Of a stretch of DNA of 64,000 nt, positions 34,965-47,430 are shown one piece after another. The DNA is taken from assembly GCF_000317065.1 (NCBI RefSeq), contig NC_019701.1, forward strand, positions 124,001-188,000, in the 5' to 3' direction. Below the pieces are notes generated by a model. It searched no databases. It saw only the letters and a list, made by a program, of their open reading frames with translations, and had not been told where the DNA came from. A program made the translations under genes and the position numbers. The stretch is from Pseudanabaena sp. PCC 7367 (lineage in GTDB: Bacteria; Cyanobacteriota; Cyanobacteriia; Pseudanabaenales; Pseudanabaenaceae). Numbering within the stretch: the stretch's first letter is position 1; each line of letters opens with the position of its first letter.

Positions 34965-35558
34965 CTAAACCGTTAATTGCACCATAGTGGTAAGGGTATA
35001 GTAATCACCCCGATCGCCCTTTGGTTCAACCTTCCAGCCCACCTTCGCGCCATAGTCATTGATCATGGTCAAAATCCCCAACCCAGAGGCATTAGCCTGC
35101 TCGGAAGCTATACTATCTTCTAACTGGCTAATATATAAATCCTGGGGATCGTTGGTTGTCAGCTTAGATGCAAACTGATAAAACCGCTCCAAAACCGCCA
35201 ACTTCACACTATTAGTAGCCATAAAAATTAGTCTACTAGGATGTAACTGCAACTCAATGCTAGTTGGGTATTTTGATTTTTCGTCCCCGTATTTCATGGA
35301 ATTTTCAAGCAATTCATTAGCAATGTAGCTAACCGAGCTTTTAATCTCTGCACTAGTATCAACCTGGCCATCGCTACCATCATCATTGGGGAAAAACGCC
35401 GCAAAATAGTCGGCCATGAAATCAGCCGAAAGCCCATTATTATTCCAGCGCTGTTGTACTGAGGTTGAATCCGGAGCAAAGGTAATTGCTAGAAAGTGTT
35501 GAACAGCAGGCAGGTTATCATCATAATTGCCAAATATTTTAGCCTTCTGCGCTGTCAT
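34965..35558 (-). CDS. slr1658-family RsbW-like ATPase
   Basis: A 197-aa protein with a GHKL/HATPase fold. An N-box is seen as ANELLENSMKYG (80-91) and a glycine-rich lid as SGLGILTMINDYG near 158-170. This fits anti-sigma kinase-like switch proteins more than sensor kinases, because there is no HisKA. It starts 20 nt after the WD40 pseudokinase gene with a strong GAGG site, so the two form an operon; the STAS partner is the next gene. Kinase activity toward the STAS serine is inferred. Confidence 0.8.
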   Translation of the reverse strand: MTAQKAKIFGNYDDNLPAVQHFLAITFAPDSTSVQQRWNNNGLSADFMADYFAAFFPNDDGSDGQVDTSAEIKSSVSYIANELLENSMKYGDEKSKYPTSIELQLHPSRLIFMATNSVKLAVLERFYQFASKLTTNDPQDLYISQLEDSIASEQANASGLGILTMINDYGAKVGWKVEPKGDRGDYYTLTTMVQLTV

Positions 35559-35578
35559 ACTAACTCCTCCTGAGCTAG

Positions 35579-38023
35579 CTACTGCCAGACCATAATTGTT
35601 TTGTCGGCACTACTGCTTACTAGTGTATGATCAACCGGGTTGAAATCAAGGGAAAGCACTGCCGCTTGATGGGCACTTAGGGTTTGCAACTGGTTGCCAG
35701 TGGCTGGTTGCCATAATTTAATTGTGCGATCGTGACTACCGCTGGCCAGGACTTGACCATTGCGATCAAAGGCGATCGTGGCCACCGCATCGGTATGTCC
35801 AGTCAGGGTCATAATTTCTTGACCGCTTTGGCGATCCCATAGCTTAATTGTGCCATCCTGTGCGCCACTGGCGATAGTCTGGCCATCGGGGCTAATGGCG
35901 ATCGCTCTGACTGGGGCACTGTGTTGCCAGCTCCTGATCTCTTGCCCCGTATTGAGATCCCAGAGCTTGATGGTGCGATTACGATCGCCACTGATAACAG
36001 TTTGGCCATCGGGGCTGATGGCGATCGCGGTGACTTCGGCATCATGCCCAGCAAAGGTAAATGTATTTTCGTGGTTTTCCAAGCTCCACAGCTTAACGGT
36101 GCGATCGGCGCTGGCACTGGCCAAAATCAAACCAGTGGGATCAAAGTCCAGATCTAGTACCTGTCCTGCGTGGCCATTGAGGACAAAAGTAGGCTCACTG
36201 CTGCGGGCATCCCAGAATCGAATTGATTTATCCAGATTACCGCTGGCGATCGTATAACCATCAGGGCTGGTGGCGATCGTATTCACGCCAGAACTAAACC
36301 CCAGATGCTTTGACATCACTTCATAGGCTTCCACCTCATTGAGGCTCCACAACCGCAACGTGCGATCGTAACTGCCACTTACCAGCACATTACCATTGGC
36401 CAAAAATGCCACTGCTCGCACCCATCCGGCATGACCAATTAAAGTAGTTTGCAGTTGTAACTCAGTGAATGCTGGCTGAGTTTGATTATTTTGATTATTA
36501 GGATCGGTGGGTGGATTAGGTAGATCAGTTGGTTGGGGGGTGCTGGGGAAAGGCGATCGTGGCAGCGTAATATTAATCTGCCTGAGTCTGGACAACAACG
36601 GCTCGAATACATATATGCCACCACTGATCAATGCTAGTCCTAAAAGCAAAAGTGCCAGCGGTCGCCACAACAAACCCGATAACTGCGGTAAAGCCGGTTT
36701 AGTTATTTCCGTGGGTGAGATCGGCTTGAGCAACGGCGCAAGGTCGGCCAGCACCGATTCAGCGTTGCCATAGCGCAAGTTGGGATCAGCAGAAACCATC
36801 CGCTCTAGAATCTCTTCTAGTTCATAGCTGGCATTGGAGCGATCCTGCCAGAGAATTTCTTTATTTTTATTGTCATAGCGAAAGCGACTGGGGTGCATGC
36901 CGGTGAGTAATTGAATTGCGGTAATCCCCAACGCGTATAAATCAAAACTGGGTTGAAGTTTCTCTTGTGCCTGCTCAACGGGCATGTAGCTGGGGGTGCC
37001 GATCGCGGTGAGGTTTTCGAGTTGGCGATCGCTTGTGATCCTAGGATTGGTAGCGGAATGATTTGTATTGCCAATTTCATTAGCGATCAACGCAATCCCC
37101 AGGCTGTTCCGTTTAGCAGCATTGGGATCGCCATTATCTAAATCAGAATCTAAAGCAGGATCTAAATCAATCCCATTATTATTTGCAGCCTCTCGATCGT
37201 TTTGCTCAGCTTGACTTTGAGCGTTTACCCGAACCTCTGATTTATCTGCGCTAGATTGTGCTGAATCTAGGTCGGTTAGTTCAAAATCGCTAAAACTAAA
37301 GCCTGAATCATCTAGGTCGATCGCCTTGTTATCTTTACTTCGATTACTAGTCTGAACATTCTCAGCCCTTGCAGGATTATTATCACCAGGTTGATTTTGC
37401 TGGCTACCTGGATCGAGATTTAGAGAACTTGTGCCCAAACTTTGAGCCAGATTAGGTTTACTGGATGGCATGGGGCGATCGCGTTCTTGCCAGATTGAAT
37501 TAGTGATTTTTTGCAACAACGAGAAATTAGCCAGATGAAACTTGCTCTCATCTCCAGGCTGCCAGATATTCTGAGGATTGATGTCACCATGCACCACCTG
37601 GTGATTGTGAACAAACTTTAAAGTAGTTAAAACATCGCCCAGCATTAACAGCACATCCTGTTCACTCCAGGGATCACCGGGACGAAGATGGGCAGCGATC
37701 GACTCACCGGGGATAATTTCCTCGACCAGATAAAACTCACCGCCCTGCTCAAAATAATCAATTAAACGGGGCAATTTATCATTTTGATCGCCCAATTCCT
37801 GGAGCGTTTGGGCTTCAGCGGCAAACAGCTTCCTGGCATTTTCCAGGCTAATTAAATCCCGATCGAGGGTTTTAAAAACTTTAATCCGGCAGAGTGGCTC
37901 CCCCGCTTGTGCTGCATCTTTGGCAATACAAGTTTGACCATAGCGATTGGTCTCTAATACCTCCGTTACCTCATAGCGCTCATGGAGGCGCTCTCCTAGC
38001 ATTAGTAGCGGTACTGTCGGCAT
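35579..38023 (-). CDS. WD40-repeat pseudokinase, membrane-anchored
   Basis: 814 aa. Residues 12-435 follow a Ser/Thr kinase fold, but the Gly-rich loop is lost (LETNRYGQT), HRD is HGD (145-147, HGDINPQN) and DFG is ANF (165-167), so Mg-ATP catalysis is unlikely. An acidic, Asn/Ser-rich insert of about 160 residues (175-335) sits before GTPSYMP. One helix at 451-474 crosses the membrane, and seven WD40 repeats (about 515-814, KLWD/GHxxxV patterns) lie outside. The start is ATG 38023, not the TTG at 38032. It heads an operon with the RsbW-like ATPase. Confidence 0.88.
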   Translation of the reverse strand: MPTVPLLMLGERLHERYEVTEVLETNRYGQTCIAKDAAQAGEPLCRIKVFKTLDRDLISLENARKLFAAEAQTLQELGDQNDKLPRLIDYFEQGGEFYLVEEIIPGESIAAHLRPGDPWSEQDVLLMLGDVLTTLKFVHNHQVVHGDINPQNIWQPGDESKFHLANFSLLQKITNSIWQERDRPMPSSKPNLAQSLGTSSLNLDPGSQQNQPGDNNPARAENVQTSNRSKDNKAIDLDDSGFSFSDFELTDLDSAQSSADKSEVRVNAQSQAEQNDREAANNNGIDLDPALDSDLDNGDPNAAKRNSLGIALIANEIGNTNHSATNPRITSDRQLENLTAIGTPSYMPVEQAQEKLQPSFDLYALGITAIQLLTGMHPSRFRYDNKNKEILWQDRSNASYELEEILERMVSADPNLRYGNAESVLADLAPLLKPISPTEITKPALPQLSGLLWRPLALLLLGLALISGGIYVFEPLLSRLRQINITLPRSPFPSTPQPTDLPNPPTDPNNQNNQTQPAFTELQLQTTLIGHAGWVRAVAFLANGNVLVSGSYDRTLRLWSLNEVEAYEVMSKHLGFSSGVNTIATSPDGYTIASGNLDKSIRFWDARSSEPTFVLNGHAGQVLDLDFDPTGLILASASADRTVKLWSLENHENTFTFAGHDAEVTAIAISPDGQTVISGDRNRTIKLWDLNTGQEIRSWQHSAPVRAIAISPDGQTIASGAQDGTIKLWDRQSGQEIMTLTGHTDAVATIAFDRNGQVLASGSHDRTIKLWQPATGNQLQTLSAHQAAVLSLDFNPVDHTLVSSSADKTIMVWQ

Positions 38024-38115
38024 CGATCGCAAAGATCCTTATTAACTAAACCTGTTGAGGCCGAGTTTTTGTGTCACAATGCACGACAGGATAACGCATA
38101 GACCCATAGATCGCA

Positions 38116-38802
38116 ATGTCTAGAAAAATCACCTTTGGATTGCTTTGGTTACTACTGGTTGGCTATGCCTTTTTTCTGGCTCCGCCCAATCAACCGGACA
38201 CCTTTGAACTAATTAAAAATCTCAGCACTGGTCAGTGGCAGGATATCAACCCGGTTACGATCGCCCTGTTTAATTTAATGGGCATCTGGCCAATGATCTA
38301 TGCCTGTTTGATGTTGATCGATGGGGTGGGTCAAAAAGTCCCCGCCTGGGTGTTTTTGGTGCTTTCGTTTGGGGTGGGCGCGTTTGCGATCTTGCCCTAT
38401 TTGGCACTGCGCGAAGATAACTATACTTTTACTGGTTCCAAGAATGCCCTGCTCAAGGTGGTCGATTCACGCTGGACCGGCATGGCGATCGCAGTGGTGG
38501 CGACGCTGTTTTTTTTATATGCCATAGCTAATGGTGATTGGAAGGCGTTTAATCAGCAATGGGTCAGCGATCGGTTTATTCATGTGATGAGCCTGGATTT
38601 TTGTTTGTTGACTCTATTATTTCCCTGGCTGTTGGGGGATGATATGGAGCGACGCGGGATCGAAGATGAGCGCCGATTCTTGATTTTTGCGTTGATTCCG
38701 CTGTTTGGGGCGTTGATTTATCTGGTGACAAGGCCACCCTTGCCCGATGAAGGGGAAGATCGGTCTGATGATCTTGATTCTGGGGCAGCAGCGGCTAGTT
38801 AA
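38116..38802 (+). CDS. conserved six-helix membrane protein
   Basis: A 228-aa protein with about six hydrophobic helices (near 4-23, 48-70, 77-100, 118-138, 153-172, 190-212) and an acidic C-terminal tail. Conserved-looking segments are LFNLMGIWPMIYACL and GAFAILPYLALR. It resembles uncharacterised cyanobacterial/chloroplast membrane proteins; I cannot name the family with confidence. It is divergent from the pseudokinase gene with about 90 nt between starts. Function is unknown. Confidence 0.75.
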   Translation: MSRKITFGLLWLLLVGYAFFLAPPNQPDTFELIKNLSTGQWQDINPVTIALFNLMGIWPMIYACLMLIDGVGQKVPAWVFLVLSFGVGAFAILPYLALREDNYTFTGSKNALLKVVDSRWTGMAIAVVATLFFLYAIANGDWKAFNQQWVSDRFIHVMSLDFCLLTLLFPWLLGDDMERRGIEDERRFLIFALIPLFGALIYLVTRPPLPDEGEDRSDDLDSGAAAAS

Positions 38803-39770
38803 TCTGAGCTAATTGCTCTAATTATTGTTAATATCGCTGGCCAAATTGTTGAAGTATAATAATTACAGGAATCGGCGATCGATCGCTGCAACTTTTTCCC
38901 ATCACTGATCCCCTCCAGATACTCAGATGAACCTGGGCTAAGCAACCGATAAAGCCTGGTATGGTACATAGCTGGATACATCAAAATACTCATCCTATCC
39001 CTGAAAGCCCTGAGCTTTATACCTGAGTTTTATAAAAGTCAAACAGTCAACTTCCGGTCAGAGTCAGCGATCAATTTAAAATCAAATCGATCGGAAATTA
39101 GCATCTAGTTGCAGCCTGGTAACTCCACTTTGTGGTATGAACGCCTAAATCCTAATACCCCAAATATTTGATTTGGAGATGCCATCCAGGGGAGTATGTT
39201 GCTGATTACTATACCTAATCAAGATTTGCCTAACTAGCTTTATTCTCTTTAATTCTTGGGGGTTCCCCATTGAGATCCGATCGCTACGATCGCTAACTTA
39301 GCCTGGTTGTGTGATTCATATCTTGGTTTAAGTGTGATATAAATCCTTGAGTACAGTTGCCCAGAGTGCAATATTTACTTTATATAAGCTTTATATAAGT
39401 AAGTTTGAATTATCGATTGCTGAGGTTAAGCAGTTGAGTAACTATTTATTTCCTTATTTCCTGCTCCTAAATAATTACAATCTGGCGATCGGCTGGGTTT
39501 AAAGCAGGTCCTAGCTGACTGAGGTCTAGTCGATGCTATCTAGATCCAAGAATCTAAATATGTGGCTAATTCTGTTTAAGACAGTTTTTGGGTATTAAAG
39601 CTCGAAGATTTATTAAGTAAATGCCCTGATTTGGTTATTTAAGCTAGATTGCATAATTTAAAAGGCATGGTGTTGCAATCGCGTGGTGAGCAGTGCGTTA
39701 ACCAGCAACTAAATTGAACATAACCATAATAATTAGAGTCATAAAACTAAGAACTAACTAGCCATTTAAT
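38803..39770. other. long 5' region of the CHAT gene
   Basis: 968 nt without a supported gene. It holds the 11-bp duplicated palindromic unit at 39378-39399 and several AT-rich promoter-like segments. A minus-strand ORF at 38799-38993 lacks family features and is not called. Confidence 0.45.
39378..39399. repeat. 2 x 11-bp near-palindromic tandem repeat
   Basis: Unit ctttatataag twice; each unit is nearly its own inverted repeat. It lies about 370 nt before the CHAT gene. Confidence 0.9.
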
Positions 39771-42700
39771 ATGCGCGATCGCCCAGGGTTAATTTTATTG
39801 CTGAGTTTGAGTATGGTTGCTGCATCCCATGCTCCAGTTCATGCGCAGATAAACCCGGACGGCAGCACCAACACAGGCGTAATTAATGGCAATACGATCG
39901 TGCCCACCAATGGTGGCACTGTGTCGGGGGGTAATCTATTCCACAGCTTTGACCAGTTTAATGTACCCAATTCTGGCGTCACTTTTGATGCGGCAAACCT
40001 GAATGGCGCAAATATCAACAATATTATTAATCGAGTGACCGGGGCAGATCCATCGGCGATCTTGGGCGCAATCCGCAGCAGCGCCAACTTTCCCCGTGCT
40101 AACGTCTATTTGCTTAATCCCAATGGGATCGCCTTTGGAAATGGTGCAAGTTTGGATATTAGTGGCTCTTTTTATGCCGCGACAGGCAGTGCGATCGAGT
40201 TTGGCAATGGCGATCTGCTCAGTACCAGCGCCCAGGATCTCGGTTTCTCGGCCAGCAACCCAATCGGCATTCAATTTGCGATCGAGCAACCCGCTGGGAT
40301 CATCAATCGTGGCAATCTCTCGGTCAGGCCAGGTAAGAATATTAGCTTAGTAGGCGGCACTGTGGTTAGCACTGGCGCATTACTGGTGCCCAATGGTTCA
40401 GTGGATGTGGCCGCTGTGCCTGGGAATAGCTCGGTGGTGTTACGATCGCCCAATTTTATTGTGGGCTTGGAAGTCAGCGCTGGGGCAATTGGGGAGCAAT
40501 GGCAAGGTACGATCGCGGAATTGCCAGAACTAGCCAGACTCTTAACCGGTGATACCAGCGATATTAATGCAGCGGAGCAGTTAGCGATCGCTCCTGATGG
40601 CTCATTGCAACTCTTGCCTGCCAGTGCGGAAACTGGCCTGAATACTTTTTTGTTGCCTACGGGGGAATTGGAAACCAGGGGCAGCTTTAAGGTGGAACCC
40701 GGTGATGCCACGATCAAAACCCTGATTGCTGGCGAAGCACAGGTGAATGCAACCGGAAATCTGGCTCTGTTGGCGGCCAGTGTGCAAACGACCCGCAGCC
40801 TGCTGGCGGTGGCCACTGGTAATTTAATTGTCCGCGATACGATCGCCACACCCACATCGATTCAGGCGGGTGGAAACCTGACCCTGTGGGGTGAACAGGG
40901 CATTGACCTGTTGGCTCTTAATCACCCCCAGAACCCAATCCAGAGCGATCAGGCGTTAGTGCTGCGTAGCAGTGGCAGGATTCTGGCTGATGCTTTTTTA
41001 GAAGCAAATGTTGGTGTATTTCCGTTTAGCCGTGATGGTGTTGAGAATCTATTCAGTGCGCTGGAATTCACCATTACACCCGGCGGTCGGCTTGTTTTTG
41101 TGGCTCCAGAAAATCGCACCACTACAATTCAAGAAAATATTCAGAATCACCGCGATCTAACCGTAGTTAGCGATCGCACCGTTGATTTAATTAATAATCC
41201 GGAACAGACTCCCGGTGATGCCACCAATAAAGATCCGATCGTTAATGATCCGGTGGAAGAAACAATTGATCCAATTACTAGCGATCCTGGCGTGATCGAG
41301 ACCGATGATAGCCCTTCGGGAGCGCCAAAGATTAATAGTGATGATCCTGGGGCTAATCCTGATAACGCCAATAGTGACTCGCCCAATAATCAAGCTGATC
41401 GCCCTTCGCCCAGAGCAGGACAAACCACCCTGCCCGTCGCCAGCCTTGCTGCGCAAACTAGTTTAAATAGTCTTGGTCGCATATCTGGACTGAACTATGG
41501 CAGTCATGCCAATAATCCGCTTAGTAATGTAGCAGATTTATTGCTCCAGGAAGGCCGCATCCTGGAAGCGCAGCAGACCCTGGATTTATCCTTGATTGCT
41601 GAACTTGAAGACTATTTAGATACTGACATTGAGGCTAAACAAATTCCCGCACAGGTATTGGCCAAGCTCACACCATCTCAACGATCGCTATATGCCAAGT
41701 ACCAGCAAATGCAAATGGGATTGGTCGAGGTTGCCAAGCAAGTTGAAACCCTGCAAAAGATTCCAGAACCAAACCTGACGGGCGTTCAAAAGCAGCGTTT
41801 AGCAACCCTGAGCCAGGAGCAGCAACAGCGAGCCGCTGACCTGGAAGCATTCATCGATCGCCCGGAAGTTAGTAATCTGGCGCAGGAAATTAGTACCGCT
41901 TCCTATCAGAATCTGCAAGCGAATCTAGGTAGCCTCCAGCAAAACGCAGTCCTGCTCTATCCCTTGATCCGTGACGATCGGGTTGAGTTAATTTTAATTA
42001 CACCAGAAGGTGACCCGATCAGGCGGACTACCTTCGTCGATCGAGAAACCTTCCTGGCTGAAGTACAGGCCTTTCGGATTGCCCTGGAAACTGTCTATGA
42101 TCCAGCGGTGGATGCCAAGGTGCATGGCCAGAAACTATACGAATGGTTGATCGCGCCGCTAGAAGCCGACCTGACTGCTGCCAATGCGGAAAGTTTGCTC
42201 TATGCGCCCTATGCCCAGCTCAGGTATATTCCCCTGTCTGCTTTGCACGATGGCGATCGCTGGTTGATTGAGCGGTTCCGGGTGAATAATATTACCGCTG
42301 CCAACTTGCAGGATTTTTCGCGTCAGCCCCAGGCTAAGCAGAAGGTTTTAGCTGGAGCCGTAACCAAGGCAGCCAGCTTTAAGATGGGCGATCGCTACTT
42401 CAATTTTGCTGGGCTGCCCTTCGCCAAACGCGAAATCGAAACCCTGGCTAGCATCATTCCCAATAACACCCAGCTCCTCGATCGGGACTTTAACCCCACC
42501 ACGATCGGTAAGCATATGCAAGACCATTCGCTAATTCATCTGGCTACCCATGCGGTGTTTACGTCTGGCAAGCCAGAGGATTCGTTTATTTTGTTCGGTG
42601 ATGGTAAGTATTCCACCCTGGCTGATATTCGCAAATGGAAGATGCCGAATGTCGATCTAATTGTCCTGAGTGCCTGTGAGACAGCGGTGGGAATGATTTT

Positions 42701-43031
42701 GGGGAATGGTGAAGAGATTCTTGGTTTTGGTTATCTAATGCAGCAGGCTGGAGCCAGGGCAACGATGGCTTCGCTGTGGTCGGTGGATGATGGCGGCACT
42801 CAAACCCTGATGGATATTTTCTATACTATGCTCAAGCGTCCTGGGATTACCAAGGCGGAAGCGATGCGGCAGGCACAAATCACCTTGATTACGGGGGACT
42901 TCGCCGCTTTGGGGGCGGAAGGAGCGGCGATCGAAAAGGAAATGCGCGATCGGCTACCCGTCACTGTAATCGAAGACCTGAAGCGCCCCTACTATTGGGC
43001 TCCGTTCATTATGATTGGCAATGGTTTGTAG
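39771..43031 (+). CDS. secreted TPS-domain/CHAT protease fusion
   Basis: 1,086 aa. A signal peptide (1-25, ending VHA-Q) precedes a two-partner-secretion domain of the filamentous haemagglutinin type (about 26-250, NPNGIAFGNGASLDISGSF). A beta-helix/low-complexity stretch rich in Asp/Asn/Pro follows (to about 560), then a helical region (about 575-720) and a C-terminal CHAT caspase-like domain (about 745-1085). The catalytic dyad is visible: His927 in HLATHA and Cys969 in SACETAVG. It should be exported across the outer membrane, so the protease would act at the surface or outside. No TpsB transporter gene is in the window. The target is unknown. Confidence 0.9.
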   Translation: MRDRPGLILLLSLSMVAASHAPVHAQINPDGSTNTGVINGNTIVPTNGGTVSGGNLFHSFDQFNVPNSGVTFDAANLNGANINNIINRVTGADPSAILGAIRSSANFPRANVYLLNPNGIAFGNGASLDISGSFYAATGSAIEFGNGDLLSTSAQDLGFSASNPIGIQFAIEQPAGIINRGNLSVRPGKNISLVGGTVVSTGALLVPNGSVDVAAVPGNSSVVLRSPNFIVGLEVSAGAIGEQWQGTIAELPELARLLTGDTSDINAAEQLAIAPDGSLQLLPASAETGLNTFLLPTGELETRGSFKVEPGDATIKTLIAGEAQVNATGNLALLAASVQTTRSLLAVATGNLIVRDTIATPTSIQAGGNLTLWGEQGIDLLALNHPQNPIQSDQALVLRSSGRILADAFLEANVGVFPFSRDGVENLFSALEFTITPGGRLVFVAPENRTTTIQENIQNHRDLTVVSDRTVDLINNPEQTPGDATNKDPIVNDPVEETIDPITSDPGVIETDDSPSGAPKINSDDPGANPDNANSDSPNNQADRPSPRAGQTTLPVASLAAQTSLNSLGRISGLNYGSHANNPLSNVADLLLQEGRILEAQQTLDLSLIAELEDYLDTDIEAKQIPAQVLAKLTPSQRSLYAKYQQMQMGLVEVAKQVETLQKIPEPNLTGVQKQRLATLSQEQQQRAADLEAFIDRPEVSNLAQEISTASYQNLQANLGSLQQNAVLLYPLIRDDRVELILITPEGDPIRRTTFVDRETFLAEVQAFRIALETVYDPAVDAKVHGQKLYEWLIAPLEADLTAANAESLLYAPYAQLRYIPLSALHDGDRWLIERFRVNNITAANLQDFSRQPQAKQKVLAGAVTKAASFKMGDRYFNFAGLPFAKREIETLASIIPNNTQLLDRDFNPTTIGKHMQDHSLIHLATHAVFTSGKPEDSFILFGDGKYSTLADIRKWKMPNVDLIVLSACETAVGMILGNGEEILGFGYLMQQAGARATMASLWSVDDGGTQTLMDIFYTMLKRPGITKAEAMRQAQITLITGDFAALGAEGAAIEKEMRDRLPVTVIEDLKRPYYWAPFIMIGNGL

Positions 43032-43042
43032 GCTTAATTTAG

Positions 43043-43879
43043 CTAAAGTTTCTGCATTACATGCAACGCAGATAGGAATGAGGTGGGGAAGGTATTTCCT
43101 ACTCCTTTTTCTAAAACCTGACGTAATGCTGTGAAGAGACGATCGCATTGTTCCTGTTCCAAACCAATATAAGGAGAAAGGGTGCTGAGCAAGGCTAGAT
43201 AATCATCGATCGAATAGTCCAACTCTAGCATCATTTGCGCGGTTTGGAGATTACCAAAATAGCCAGAATCGATCGCACTTTGAGCTATCTCATCCAAGTT
43301 CTCTTGATGGCTGTCCCCGTCGGCATAGTTGGCCAAATGGGGGGCGATCGCCTGATAAACTGGCTCCATTTTTTGATAAATCTGATAACTGGGAACGGGT
43401 GGTGTATTCCATAGCAAAATCAGGGAACCATGCTGGGGCAGGAGGCTGGCGATCTTTTCACACCTGGTATCCGGCGAAAGCCAATGAAACGAAGTTGTCG
43501 CCAGGACAGCATCAAATCTTTCTTCCTTTTCGATCGCCTCTGCCTGCCAGGATTCAAAGGTATTATTAATTACTTCAACCTGATCATAGGGTTCGCATTT
43601 TTGCCTGGCGATCGCCCATTGCCCTTTACTCGGCTCGATCGCGGTAATCTTTAAACCCATCTCGGCAAAGGTAGGTGTAGCGATCGCGGGGCCACAACCA
43701 ATTTCCACGATCCGATCGCCTTTGGATAGGTTGGCTAATTGCACAGCGCGATCGCAAATTGAGCGGGGATACCTGGGACGAGCGCGATCGTAAGCCGCCG
43801 CCGCTTCGCTATACCAGTTTCGCCGCTGGGTTTCGGCCATTTCGCCGTAGGTCATGTATTCTGGCTTCACAGTAATCAT
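43043..43879 (-). CDS. class I SAM-dependent methyltransferase
   Basis: A 278-aa enzyme with a Rossmann methyltransferase core: motif I GDRIVEIGCGPAIATPTFA (about 54-72), motif II ITAIEPSKGQ, and FDAVLATTSFHWLSPDTR. It is of the UbiE/Tam small-molecule type; the substrate cannot be predicted. It lies 61 nt downstream of the double-nuclease gene on the same strand and 11 nt from the convergent CHAT gene. Confidence 0.85.
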   Translation of the reverse strand: MITVKPEYMTYGEMAETQRRNWYSEAAAAYDRARPRYPRSICDRAVQLANLSKGDRIVEIGCGPAIATPTFAEMGLKITAIEPSKGQWAIARQKCEPYDQVEVINNTFESWQAEAIEKEERFDAVLATTSFHWLSPDTRCEKIASLLPQHGSLILLWNTPPVPSYQIYQKMEPVYQAIAPHLANYADGDSHQENLDEIAQSAIDSGYFGNLQTAQMMLELDYSIDDYLALLSTLSPYIGLEQEQCDRLFTALRQVLEKGVGNTFPTSFLSALHVMQKL

Positions 43880-43940
43880 CGCTTAGCATAAAGTTGTAGG
43901 GTTTAATTATTGAGTTCTAGATAAACAAAACGAGGAGTCA

Positions 43941-45344
43941 CTACAAAACTCCAGAATTAAAGTTGCGCGAAGAAAATAGAAGTTTAAAAGTAGCTTGATT
44001 GTTTAAATCAGTTAAAAAACCTACTACAAAACCTAGTTTCATATTATCCCAGCCTAGACTATCAACTAAATCCTCTAACTCGCTTTCTAAAGCTAATAAA
44101 CTTGGAGTTTTACTGTTAGCAAAAACTATAACCAAAAATCCTCTATCAATGTCTTGATTTTGTAAATAACTGCATATTTGAGAAAATCCATTAATTAATT
44201 TCTTCCGTATAGACGGTGGATACTGCAATTGATATTCATGCACGAACTTTACTTCATAACCATCAATTACGTCTTCCTTATGATTTACATGAATTAAATC
44301 AACTCTTCCACTACTAGTGGTTGATTTCCCAATGTAATCGTTTTCTAGAAAGTTTTGAAAAGCTTCTACAGCATCCCGCTCATTAAAATTCTGGAAATTG
44401 CCTACACCAGGAATTATTTCCCTTACGATATTTATTGTATTTATATTTTCCTTGATTTCTTCAATTGACTCATCCGGTACATGCGCATCAAGATATTTAT
44501 TTGCCCACTTCAAAAAACTTTCCGAGCTATACATATAGAAAAGCTTAGCTCCTGCCTCTTTAATCTCCCGAACTAACTCTGGATGGGGGCCGAGTGTCCA
44601 GTTACCTTTCGTCTTCCACCACCAATCCTCCTTACGATCGTCGGTAATAAAAATTATGCTTTCAATATTCTCAGAACTTACCTTCTCAAGGATTTGCTTC
44701 CAAATAATGAGATCGCCAAATTCTCTTTTGAATTCTAATCCATTGTAGAAGCGTGAGCTATCCTTCTTATTTTCCCAATCACAAAAGCCTGGGGGATACT
44801 CTGCCTTATACCTCATTTCACCTTCGCGGTATATTTGGTCTAGCTCATCTTGTGATTCAGGAGATTGACCAACGCAGTTACTAAAAAGATAGTCGATCTT
44901 TTCTCTGATGAAATCATACTGGTCAGATTTCACCTGATCCTGTTCTAGACTTTCAAATTCAGCCCGAAATGAAGCAATTAGAGTGTCTATTTTGTTGATA
45001 AATTCTGTTAACTTAGCTTCGGCAAATCGATAGTTAGTATCAGATTGTAGAGTTTTAAGGCCGCTTTTTGCTTTATTTACATATGTTTCAATAGTCTTAA
45101 ATTTACCTTCGCAATCCTGTACTGCTTTGATGCGATTAAATTGATACTCAAGTGCAACTTGATAAGGCATCCAGAGTCGATCTTTAACTTTTTGCAAAAC
45201 ACCTAAAAAATCATCACGAGCTTTTGCATCAAGCCTGTAGAGATTAAGCAAAACATTTGCATCCAGCACAAAAATACACTTTTCCCAAAGCTCCTTAAAC
45301 TCATCCTCAGTTGGTCGATAATAGCCAGGGAAAAGATCGCGCAT
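43941..45344 (-). CDS. PIN-like nuclease fused to PD-(D/E)XK-like domain
   Basis: 467 aa. The N-terminal part (about 20-285) fits the long PIN-like family: FVLDANVLLN (Asp28), YQVALEYQFNR (Glu66), FGDLIIWKQIL (Asp211) and FITDDRKEDWW (235-242). The C-terminal part (about 325-467) has VDL (Asp349) and, 14 residues later, GYEVK (Glu364, Lys366), the core of a PD-(D/E)XK nuclease. The two nuclease signatures in one chain suggest an RNA/DNA-degrading defence or stress protein; that is inference. The ATG at 45344 is preferred over a GTG two codons upstream. Base composition is AT-richer than its neighbours, consistent with transfer. Confidence 0.78.
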   Translation of the reverse strand: MRDLFPGYYRPTEDEFKELWEKCIFVLDANVLLNLYRLDAKARDDFLGVLQKVKDRLWMPYQVALEYQFNRIKAVQDCEGKFKTIETYVNKAKSGLKTLQSDTNYRFAEAKLTEFINKIDTLIASFRAEFESLEQDQVKSDQYDFIREKIDYLFSNCVGQSPESQDELDQIYREGEMRYKAEYPPGFCDWENKKDSSRFYNGLEFKREFGDLIIWKQILEKVSSENIESIIFITDDRKEDWWWKTKGNWTLGPHPELVREIKEAGAKLFYMYSSESFLKWANKYLDAHVPDESIEEIKENINTINIVREIIPGVGNFQNFNERDAVEAFQNFLENDYIGKSTTSSGRVDLIHVNHKEDVIDGYEVKFVHEYQLQYPPSIRKKLINGFSQICSYLQNQDIDRGFLVIVFANSKTPSLLALESELEDLVDSLGWDNMKLGFVVGFLTDLNNQATFKLLFSSRNFNSGVL

Positions 45345-45537
45345 TGCCACCAGAAAAAATCAACACCTAAACCTAGAATTTTTCAGCAACAAAGTCAAGC
45401 GCCATAAACACCCATACCCCACCTAAAAACGTCCAAACCATAAAAGTAGGGAAATCCCCACCCACAAAAAAACAACAGAACCCATCAACAGTTGTAAAAT
45501 AGGCACAGTAGGTAAGTAAAAGCACTGACAAACCATT

Positions 45538-45861
45538 ATGGGATTTTTTGACTCTGAGATCGTTCAACAAGAAGCACAGAGCCTATTTAGAGACTATCAA
45601 TCGCTGATGGAGCTTGGCGGCAACTATGGCAAGTTCGATCGAGAAGGCAAAAAGCTATTCATTGCCAGAATGGAAGAAATCATGGATCGCTACAAAATAT
45701 TCATGAAACGGTTCGAGCTATCCGACGACTTCATGGCGCAAATGACCATGAAACAACTCCAAACCCATTTAGGCGGGTTTGGCATCACGCCCCAGCAAAT
45801 GTTCGAGCAAATGAACACCACCCTGGAGCGGATGCGATCGGAAGTGGAAAACAATACCTAA
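45538..45861 (+). CDS. DUF1825 family protein
   Basis: A 107-aa helical cytosolic protein of the cyanobacterial DUF1825 family. It opens MGFFDSEIVQQEAQSLFRDY and continues with ARMEEIMDRYKIFMKRFELS and MTMKQLQTHLGGFG. Function is unknown. It is divergent from the double-nuclease gene and ends 18 nt from the convergent MerA-like gene. Confidence 0.9.
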   Translation: MGFFDSEIVQQEAQSLFRDYQSLMELGGNYGKFDREGKKLFIARMEEIMDRYKIFMKRFELSDDFMAQMTMKQLQTHLGGFGITPQQMFEQMNTTLERMRSEVENNT

Positions 45862-45879
45862 CCGATTTTTGGCTGCTGC

Positions 45880-47430
45880 CTAGCCACTCAACTTATTAAT
45901 AAACTTCAATAGCTTCTTCGCCATCGGCGTAACCAGGGTTTTACGGTAAGCCGCCGCCGCCTTTTTGATTCCATCTGCTTGCACCGGATAGGGATGAATC
46001 ACGCTGGCGATCTTCTTCAGGCCAATCTTGTTATACATCGCCATCGTCACTTCACTGATCATTTCACCAGCATGGGGAGCCACAATCGTAGCGCCCAGGA
46101 TCTTATCGCTACCAGTTTTGTGATGCACCTTCACAAAGCCTTCCGTTTCACTGTCAGCGATCGCGCGATCGACTGTATCCATTGGCACTTTGATCGTGCT
46201 AACTGAGATTCCTTTTTCCTGAGCCTCATGTTCATACATACCCACATGGGCGATCTCCGGATCGGTGAAGGTAACCCAGGGCATAGTTAGATCGCTAACC
46301 TTATACTTTGTCAGGCCAAAGGGTGAGAGCAAAGCATTTTTAATTACAATTACCGCTGCTGATTCCGCCGCATGGGTGAATTTCCAATAACCTTTGCAAA
46401 TATCGCCCGCTGCCAGAATTTGGGGATTGCTGGTTTGTAAATAATCATCCACATGCACGCCGTATTTATCGTATTTGACTCCCATCTGCTCCAGGTTCAA
46501 ACCCTCTACATTGGCAGCCCGTCCTGCCCCCACCAGGATTTCATCCACTTCGATCGATCGGAGTTGGCCATTCTGCTCGAAGTGCAACACCTTGCCAGTT
46601 TCCGATTGGGTAGCGCGAGTTAGTTTTATGCCCAGCTCTACCTGCAAACCTTCTCGATCGAATACGTTCTGGACAATATCGGCGGCATCGGCATCTTCTT
46701 TATTGAGAATATGCGAACCACGATGTAATAGCACGACTTCACAACCTAACCGCCGGAATGATTGTGCCAATTCACAACCGATCGGTCCGCCACCGATTAC
46801 TGCCAATCGATTTGGCCTGGTAGTGAGGTTAAATACAGTTTCATTGGTTAGATAGCCAACCCCTTCAATGCCATCAATTTTGGGGCGAACGGCTCTTGCA
46901 CCAGTAGCGATCACTGCTTTCTTGAATTGCAAGGTGCGATCGCCCACCGCGATCGTGTTTTCGCCAGTGAAAGTGCCACTGCCCAGAAAAACATCGATTC
47001 CCAGGCTGGCAAAGCGTTGGGCAGAGTCATGGTGACTGATGCCAGCTCGCAACTTGCGCATTCTTTGCATCACTGCCGGAAAGTCGATTTTGATGTTTTC
47101 AGGCACACCAATGCCGAAGGTGGCCGCATTCCTCATTTCACCCACCACCCGCGAAGAACGAATTACACATTTAGATGGCACACAGCCCACATTCAAGCAA
47201 TCGCCGCCCATCAGGTGCTTTTCGATGATCGCTATCTTTAAGCCAATATCCAGCCCCGCCGAACCAGCCGCTACCACCAGTCCGGCTGTGCCTGCACCAA
47301 TTACCACCAGGTCATATACACCAGTGGGCTTCGGGTTCACCCAATCATTGGGATGGAGATGATTAACCAATTTCTGGTTATATTCATCCATTGGGGGCAC
47401 GGTCACGCGATCGAAAGCTGGGCTGGTCAT
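45880..47430 (-). CDS. MerA-like pyridine nucleotide-disulfide oxidoreductase
   Basis: A 516-aa FAD flavoprotein: GAGTAG dinucleotide motif (46-51), redox pair Cys78/Cys83 (GGDCLNVGCVPSKC), second GGGPIGCELAQSF NAD(P) motif, GAGRAANVEGL and a C-terminal HPYPVQADGIKKAA dimerisation segment. It lacks both the N-terminal heavy-metal domain and the C-terminal CC pair of real mercuric reductases, so mercury reduction is unlikely. The natural disulfide or quinone substrate is unknown. It lies 123 nt downstream of a TVP38 family gene on the same strand, a pairing I recall from other cyanobacteria. Confidence 0.88.
   Translation of the reverse strand: MTSPAFDRVTVPPMDEYNQKLVNHLHPNDWVNPKPTGVYDLVVIGAGTAGLVVAAGSAGLDIGLKIAIIEKHLMGGDCLNVGCVPSKCVIRSSRVVGEMRNAATFGIGVPENIKIDFPAVMQRMRKLRAGISHHDSAQRFASLGIDVFLGSGTFTGENTIAVGDRTLQFKKAVIATGARAVRPKIDGIEGVGYLTNETVFNLTTRPNRLAVIGGGPIGCELAQSFRRLGCEVVLLHRGSHILNKEDADAADIVQNVFDREGLQVELGIKLTRATQSETGKVLHFEQNGQLRSIEVDEILVGAGRAANVEGLNLEQMGVKYDKYGVHVDDYLQTSNPQILAAGDICKGYWKFTHAAESAAVIVIKNALLSPFGLTKYKVSDLTMPWVTFTDPEIAHVGMYEHEAQEKGISVSTIKVPMDTVDRAIADSETEGFVKVHHKTGSDKILGATIVAPHAGEMISEVTMAMYNKIGLKKIASVIHPYPVQADGIKKAAAAYRKTLVTPMAKKLLKFINKLSG

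What the first reader, a model, noticed from the sequence alone, without database searches (positions are those of the whole stretch)
39771..43031. Caspase-like CHAT protease on a two-partner-secretion passenger
A signal peptide and haemagglutinin-type TPS domain precede a CHAT domain with intact His927/Cys969. CHAT proteases are usually cytosolic; here the protein should be exported, suggesting a surface or extracellular protease that may act on neighbours, on other filaments or in self-processing. A TpsB transporter is absent nearby, and almost 1 kb of non-coding DNA precedes it.
Basis: partly seen in the sequence, partly recalled or inferred. Interest (0 to 1): 0.65.

Follow-up and report, generated by a model that had tools for sequence, protein, structure and literature searches.

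The report
Exported cyanobacterial protein with caspase-like protease
This cyanobacterial gene encodes a protein built to leave the cell by the two-partner route and carrying a caspase-like protease at its far end; it belongs to a widespread and apparently undescribed cyanobacterial kind in which the protease end has been exchanged during evolution while the export end was kept.

Summary
ORF 39771-43031 (1086 aa) has a signal peptide, a TPS secretion domain (129 bits) and a C-terminal CHAT protease domain (217 bits) with H927 and C969; C969 is the only cysteine. No TpsB lies nearby, and 968 bp of non-coding DNA precede the gene. The genome has two TpsB genes elsewhere and a second TPS-CHAT gene.

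The framing needs correction. Exported CHAT proteins are the rule in cyanobacteria: 34 of 45 unfused CHAT proteins show a signal-peptide-like start (29% in controls). The architecture is common: at least 34 fused TPS-CHAT genes in 16 of 25 genomes sampled across the class. The dyad is intact in 48 of 48 fused proteins, whose mature parts are nearly cysteine-free (0.12%).

New results: (i) the fusions' TPS modules form one clade but their CHAT domains fall in three (AU p 1.5e-58), so protease modules were exchanged, including in this lineage; (ii) fused genes lie near TpsB, DUF928 and CHASE2 genes 10 to 25 times more often than chance; (iii) many have a proline-rich or hydrophobe-poor linker before the protease.

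Best model: a TpsA exoprotein with a built-in cysteine protease acting outside the cytoplasm, probably on its own or a partner passenger. No activity has been shown.

The parts
38803..39770 (.). 968 bp non-coding DNA before the gene
   Evidence: No ORF over 64 aa; G+C 37.9% against 46.5% in the window; no Rfam hit; no protein remnant in a translated search against neighbouring-gene families. It is the longest upstream gap among the fused genes measured (median 312 bp).
39771..39845 (+). Sec signal peptide, residues 1-25 (predicted cleavage VHA/Q)
   Evidence: Sequence MRDRPGLILLLSLSMVAASHAPVHA; heuristic scans.
39843..40445 (+). TPS secretion domain, residues 25-225, with NRVTG and NPNG motifs
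   Evidence: PF05860 129.5 bits; NCBIfam adhes_NPXG; profile of the family matches HMW1, EtpA and HxuA secretion domains, E 5e-17 to 6e-10; structural match to EtpA, Z 12.8.
40446..41177 (+). Short beta-rich passenger, residues 226-469
   Evidence: Strand-rich but low-confidence part of the AlphaFold2 model; 44-55% identical to the same region of same-family homologues.
41178..41510 (+). Disordered Asp/Pro/Asn/Ser-rich linker, residues 470-580
   Evidence: No secondary structure, pLDDT under 35; 60-residue stretch with 10% hydrophobic residues; residues 460-560 match no other protein in the set.
41517..41933 (+). Alpha-helical segment, residues 583-721, homologous to the segment before CHAT in unfused CHAT proteins
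   Evidence: Helices in the model; 35-39% identity to unfused CHAT proteins; weak TPR-like profile match.
41946..43022 (+). Caspase-like CHAT protease domain, structural span residues 726-1084 (Pfam span 786-1084)
   Evidence: PF12770 216.7 bits; confident model; Z 27.6 to Csx29 TPR-CHAT, 25.9 to separase, 19.6 to gingipain RgpB.
42549..42551 (+). Catalytic His927 codon (HLATHA motif)
   Evidence: His in 48/48 fused and 58/58 unfused homologues.
42675..42677 (+). Catalytic Cys969 codon (SACETA motif), the only cysteine in the protein
   Evidence: Cys in 48/48 fused and 58/58 unfused homologues.

Best explanation
The protein is a TpsA-type exoprotein that carries its own cysteine protease. It is made with a Sec signal peptide, crosses the inner membrane unfolded, and its TPS domain docks on one of the two TpsB pores encoded elsewhere in the genome. 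The short beta-helical part is threaded to the outside. The C-terminal helical and CHAT module, joined by a disordered linker of about 110 residues, works outside the cytoplasm, either held in the periplasm behind the pore or at the surface. Its most likely job is to cut the exoprotein itself or a partner TPS passenger and so mature or release it: a built-in counterpart of separate maturation proteases such as SphB1 for FHA or LapG for CdrA. Shown here: domain architecture, intact and conserved dyad, near cysteine-free composition, TpsB genes in the genome, wide distribution, linkage of the family to TpsB, DUF928 and CHASE2 genes, and exchange of protease modules on a kept TPS module. Inferred: actual export, protease activity, the substrate, and the site of action.
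For: TPS and CHAT domains in one intact ORF. Two TpsB proteins with ShlB and POTRA_2 domains in the genome. 34 fused TPS-CHAT genes in 16 of 25 class-wide genomes, 34 of 135 TPS proteins, a lower bound because the CHAT list was cut. Fused genes within 3 kb of TpsB 4 of 34 against 0.16 expected, of DUF928 5 of 34 against 0.46, of CHASE2 7 of 34 against 0.48. Unfused CHAT genes within 6 kb of unfused TPS genes 12 of 121 against 1.75 expected. A CHAT-TPS-TpsB operon with 4-nt gene overlaps in a Pseudomonadales MAG (L054). Dyad in 48/48 fused and 58/58 unfused homologues. Mature fused proteins 0.12% Cys against 0.96% in neighbours; 28 of 48 hold exactly one Cys. CHAT fold matches known proteases: Csx29, separase, gingipain. 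Linker poor in hydrophobic residues in 23 of 48 fused proteins, against 5 of 35 unfused TPS and 7 of 50 unfused CHAT proteins. TPS modules form one clade while CHAT modules fall in three places. Precedents for proteolytic maturation of TpsA proteins and LapG cutting of CdrA's periplasmic tail: PMC5422565.
Against: No secretion, cleavage or activity data exist. The window's own locus has neither TpsB nor DUF928 nor CHASE2 next to it, so the linkage evidence comes from relatives. The fraction of linked genes is small (4 to 7 of 34). The gene is interrupted by a transposase in one same-family genome, so it is dispensable there. No cleavage site could be proposed; the linker is not conserved. Signal-peptide calls are heuristic, with 29% positives among control ORFs.
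Confidence: 0.45

Rival explanations
1. The CHAT domain is carried fully to the surface on a beta-helical stalk and cuts foreign or environmental substrates: neighbouring cells, phage, predators or matrix.
For: C-terminal enzymatic domains on TPS stalks are known in CDI exoproteins (PMC5422565). Clan CD peptidases acting outside cells exist, and the CHAT fold is near gingipains. The paralogous TPS-CHAT genes and the exchange of the C-terminal module would suit a changing target.
Against: CHAT and TPS also occur as separate neighbouring genes in which CHAT has its own signal-peptide-like start but no TPS domain. Such a CHAT could not use TpsB and would stay in the periplasm, which points to a periplasmic or partner-processing role.
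Confidence: 0.22
2. The protein is a polymorphic-toxin-like conflict effector, with CHAT as the delivered C-terminal toxin.
For: Caspase-like domains are reported as C-terminal toxin domains in polymorphic toxins (PMC3482391). Here the protease module was exchanged while the export module was kept.
Against: No co-directional immunity-like gene follows it: the next gene is on the other strand and encodes a methyltransferase. CHAT is nearly constant (always CHAT, always an intact dyad), unlike toxin tips. The cited survey lists T2SS, T6SS, T7SS and PVC export for Tox-Caspase, not TPS.
Confidence: 0.1
3. The protein never crosses the outer membrane: it is a periplasmic signalling protease whose TPS domain docks on TpsB or other beta-helices, in a pathway with CHASE2 sensors and DUF928.
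For: Relatives lie next to CHASE2-cyclase, CHASE2-GGDEF-EAL and CHAT-CHASE2 genes and next to DUF928. The solved structure of the transmembrane anti-sigma factor DdvA contains a domain that matches CHAT, Z 21.9.
Against: The full, well-conserved TPS domain with NPNG motif is the minimal unit that drives TpsB export (PMC5422565), and relatives adjoin TpsB genes. The window locus lacks CHASE2 and DUF928.
Confidence: 0.18
4. CHAT here is only a structural or regulatory domain without peptidase activity.
For: Activity has not been shown for any TPS-CHAT protein that I could find.
Against: His and Cys conserved in 106 of 106 homologues, with the catalytic Cys the only cysteine kept in most fused proteins.
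Confidence: 0.05

Closest known systems
TpsA exoproteins of two-partner secretion (FHA, HMW1, HxuA, EtpA, CdrA)
   Same: Signal peptide, N-terminal TPS domain with NPNG motif, beta-rich passenger; profile and structural match to HMW1, HxuA and EtpA secretion domains.
   Different: Ends in a conserved caspase-like protease. Known maturation proteases of TpsA proteins are separate and are described as not part of TPS operons (PMC5422565).
Csx29 / TPR-CHAT (Craspase) and cytosolic CHAT proteases such as SAVED-CHAT
   Same: CHAT fold and dyad, preceded by helices; Z 27.6 over 315 residues at 3.0 A.
   Different: Those work in the cytoplasm with CRISPR or cyclic-nucleotide partners; this one has export signals. 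Sequence identity is only about 13%.
Cyanobacterial signal-peptide-bearing CHAT proteins, some with TPR repeats
   Same: Closest relatives of the window's helical and CHAT part (up to 58% identity over CHAT).
   Different: No TPS domain, so no obvious way across the outer membrane.
LapG and its TPS substrate CdrA
   Same: Cysteine protease controlling release of a TPS adhesin; c-di-GMP-type proteins (CHASE2-GGDEF-EAL) adjoin some TPS-CHAT genes.
   Different: LapG is a separate protein and not of the CHAT family; here the protease is in cis. Any c-di-GMP control is inference.
Caspase-like domains of polymorphic toxins
   Same: Exported protein with a C-terminal caspase-like domain (PMC3482391).
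   Different: That survey lists T2SS, T6SS, T7SS and PVC export for Tox-Caspase, and does not mention CHAT.

Membership tests
TpsA exoprotein (two-partner secretion) | N-terminal TPS secretion domain | tested here: met
   PF05860 129.5 bits, cut-off 33.5; adhes_NPXG 67 bits, cut-off 29; family profile against HMW1 E 5e-17
TpsA exoprotein (two-partner secretion) | Sec signal peptide directly before the TPS domain | tested here: met
   Clear n/h/c regions with VHA cleavage site in the sequence; heuristic only
TpsA exoprotein (two-partner secretion) | Cognate TpsB transporter in the genome | tested here: inconclusive
   Two TpsB genes present, both unlinked, so the cognate one is not identified
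TpsA exoprotein (two-partner secretion) | Extended beta-helical passenger | tested here: inconclusive
   Strand-rich to about residue 470 but low confidence and short
TpsA exoprotein (two-partner secretion) | Secretion depends on TpsB | not testable with these tools
   Needs experiment
CHAT peptidase family | CHAT domain over the whole profile | tested here: met
   216.7 bits, profile 4-289 of 289
CHAT peptidase family | His-Cys catalytic dyad | tested here: met
   H927 and C969; conserved in 106 of 106 homologues
CHAT peptidase family | Caspase/separase-like fold | tested here: met
   Confident model; Csx29 Z 27.6, separase 25.9, gingipain 19.6
CHAT peptidase family | Proteolytic activity | not testable with these tools
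   Needs experiment
Type III-E TPR-CHAT (Csx29) | TPR repeats before CHAT | tested here: inconclusive
   No Pfam TPR hit in the protein; weak profile match of the helical part to a designed TPR protein, E 1.7e-4
Type III-E TPR-CHAT (Csx29) | gRAMP/Cas7-11 partner gene | not tested
   Neighbours at 34968-47430 carry no CRISPR-type domain; the rest of the genome was not searched
Polymorphic/CDI toxin | Immunity gene directly downstream on the same strand | tested here: not met
   The next gene, 43043-43879, is on the opposite strand and is a methyltransferase

The most novel reading that the evidence does not exclude
Cyanobacteria have a dedicated system in which a TPS exoprotein carries, or is encoded beside, its own caspase-like release protease. 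Exported DUF928 and CHASE2 sensor proteins would belong to the same system and report envelope or external signals to the protease. The protease module has been exchanged at least twice on a kept TPS module.
Probability: 0.25. Interest if true: 0.72.

Novelty: new variant of a known kind. Interest (0 to 1): 0.5.

Why it matters
Caspase-like proteins in cyanobacteria are mostly discussed as intracellular cell-death enzymes. The data suggest that many are built for the periplasm or the outside, and that one subfamily is tied to a secretion route. If the CHAT domain cuts its own exoprotein, it would be a built-in maturation or release protease for TpsA proteins, whose known proteases are separate and unlinked. 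It would also give a first functional setting for DUF928.

Tried and rejected
Window-specific oddity: rejected, since fused TPS-CHAT occurs in 16 of 25 class-wide genomes. Chance joining of two frames: rejected, one open frame with full-length domains, and homologues with the same order. Pseudogene: no stops or frameshifts in the window copy. Of the same-family relatives, G001 and G008 are intact, G007 and G013 read in two frames in fragmented assemblies, and G004 is interrupted by a transposase gene. Local TpsB overlooked: not found in the vicinity; two exist elsewhere. Hidden gene, RNA or coding remnant in the 968-bp upstream DNA: none found. One origin for all TPS-CHAT fusions in the CHAT tree: rejected by AU test (groups were chosen after seeing the tree, quick-search trees). 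A conserved cleavage site in the linker: not found; the linker is unique to this protein. Solved CHAT structures were not reached by sequence profile, only by fold. Literature searches for CHAT together with TPS or haemagglutinin terms found no paper describing the fusion; only an open-licence library was searched, so prior description elsewhere is not excluded. TPS-CHAT may well be listed as an architecture in Pfam/InterPro; that was not checked.

Full report
Observation. The ORF at 39771-43031 (+) encodes 1086 residues. Pfam gives a TPS secretion domain at 25-225 (129.5 bits) and a CHAT domain at 786-1084 (216.7 bits). H927 lies in HLATHA and C969 in SACETA; C969 is the only cysteine. A signal peptide ends at VHA/Q26. 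The 968 bp before the gene are A+T-rich and hold no gene, RNA family or coding remnant that could be found. Every statement in the finding about the sequence is correct.

Genome context. The window is part of a 4.89-Mb cyanobacterial genome in two contigs. It holds five CHAT proteins, four TPS proteins over cut-off, and two TpsB proteins with ShlB and POTRA_2 domains, none next to the window gene. One other gene, C2:1578433-1583688 (L090), also joins TPS and CHAT.

How common. In 25 genomes spread over the class, TPS and CHAT share one open frame in at least 34 genes in 16 genomes, that is 16 of the 19 genomes with any TPS domain and a quarter of all TPS proteins. The count is a lower bound because the CHAT hit list was cut. 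In the sample collected for alignment, 48 of 48 fused and 58 of 58 unfused CHAT proteins keep His and Cys. This is a regular cyanobacterial protein kind.

Export. Fused proteins start with signal-peptide-like sequences in 36 of 44 cases, unfused CHAT proteins in 34 of 45, control ORFs in 29% (heuristic). So the idea that CHAT proteins are cytosolic by default does not fit cyanobacteria. The mature parts of fused proteins hold 0.12% cysteine against 0.96% in neighbouring ORFs, and 28 of 48 hold exactly one, as expected for an extracytoplasmic thiol enzyme. Fused genes lie within 3 kb of a TpsB gene in 4 of 34 cases against 0.16 expected.

Functional coupling of TPS and CHAT. Unfused CHAT genes lie within 6 kb of unfused TPS genes 12 times in 121 against 1.75 expected. 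A Pseudomonadales MAG has an overlapping CHAT-TPS-TpsB operon (L054). Fused genes are also near DUF928 (5 of 34, expected 0.46) and CHASE2 (7 of 34, expected 0.48), and DUF928 genes are near CHASE2 genes in 57 of 117 cases, expected 1.1. The CHASE2 neighbours carry adenylate/guanylate cyclase, GGDEF-EAL or CHAT domains. The window's own locus lacks these neighbours.

Evolution. In the CHAT tree, the window protein and its same-family relatives (four rows, 100% SH-aLRT) nest inside a clade of unfused CHAT proteins (23 unfused, 4 fused, 99%). The main group of TPS-CHAT proteins lies elsewhere, and two more fusions fall in a third group. Forcing all fused proteins together is rejected (p 1.5e-58), as is joining the window clade with L090 (p 1.3e-4). 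In the TPS tree, by contrast, all TPS modules of fused proteins form one supported clade apart from the ordinary TpsA proteins sampled, and the window's TPS module is grouped with L090's (seven rows, 100%). The simplest reading is that one kind of TPS module was kept while its protease was exchanged. The trees are quick searches and the groups were chosen after seeing them; which lineage was the recipient is not shown.

Structure. The AlphaFold2 model (13 sequences, mean pLDDT 57) is confident for the CHAT region, fair for the TPS core, and without structure at 470-580. Fold comparison gives Csx29 TPR-CHAT (Z 27.6), separase (25.9), anti-sigma factor DdvA (21.9) and gingipain (19.6) for CHAT, and EtpA (12.8) and hemolysin A (12) for the TPS part. 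Many fused proteins have a proline-rich or otherwise hydrophobe-poor linker before the protease module (23 of 48, against 5 of 35 unfused TPS and 7 of 50 unfused CHAT proteins).

Mechanism. The protein most likely passes the inner membrane by Sec, presents its TPS domain to a TpsB pore, and keeps a folded C-terminal protease on a flexible tether outside the cytoplasm. The recurrent pairing with TPS modules, in cis or as neighbouring genes, makes processing or release of the TPS passenger the leading hypothesis, like SphB1 with FHA or LapG with CdrA (PMC5422565) but built in. A protease facing outward is the main rival. Export, activity and substrate are all inferred.

Novelty. CHAT peptidases and TpsA proteins are known families, and each domain here is an ordinary member by sequence and fold. 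The combination is widespread but no paper describing it was found in the open-licence library. The survey of polymorphic toxins does not list TPS export for caspase-like toxins (PMC3482391). I rate it a new variant of a known kind.

Noticed in passing
window 35579-38032 (-): Serine/threonine protein kinase domain joined to a C-terminal WD40 propeller (817 aa); related genes also adjoin the TPS-CHAT loci L122 and L129.
   Followed up: partly
window 43941-45350 (-): PIN_8 domain protein of 469 aa with a further C-terminal part of unknown kind, close downstream of the TPS-CHAT gene on the other strand.
   Followed up: no
L090 3528-12698 (own genome C2, about 1574500-1583700): The second TPS-CHAT gene (1778 aa) follows what read as ECF sigma factor and anti-sigma genes (by sequence only) and an HtrA-type protease gene (Trypsin_2 plus PDZ by Pfam), which suggests an envelope-stress setting.
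   Followed up: partly
L101 7383-12061 (-): Same-family TPS-CHAT gene interrupted between its TPS and CHAT parts by what reads as a transposase gene.
   Followed up: yes
25 cyanobacterial genomes, e.g. G058:C1:1124015-1134300: DUF928 genes sit within 3 kb of CHASE2 genes in 57 of 117 cases (1.1 expected): a conserved and apparently undescribed pairing; only one open-licence paper mentions DUF928.
   Followed up: partly
L133 1727-4075 (+): A CHAT domain (weak, 62 bits) joined to a CHASE2 domain in one protein, two genes upstream of a TPS-CHAT gene.
   Followed up: no
L054 5791-13060 (+): CHAT, TPS and TpsB genes in one overlapping operon in a Pseudomonadales MAG, with a TPS domain outside the cyanobacterial CHAT-type clade: an independent pairing of CHAT with TPS.
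   Followed up: partly
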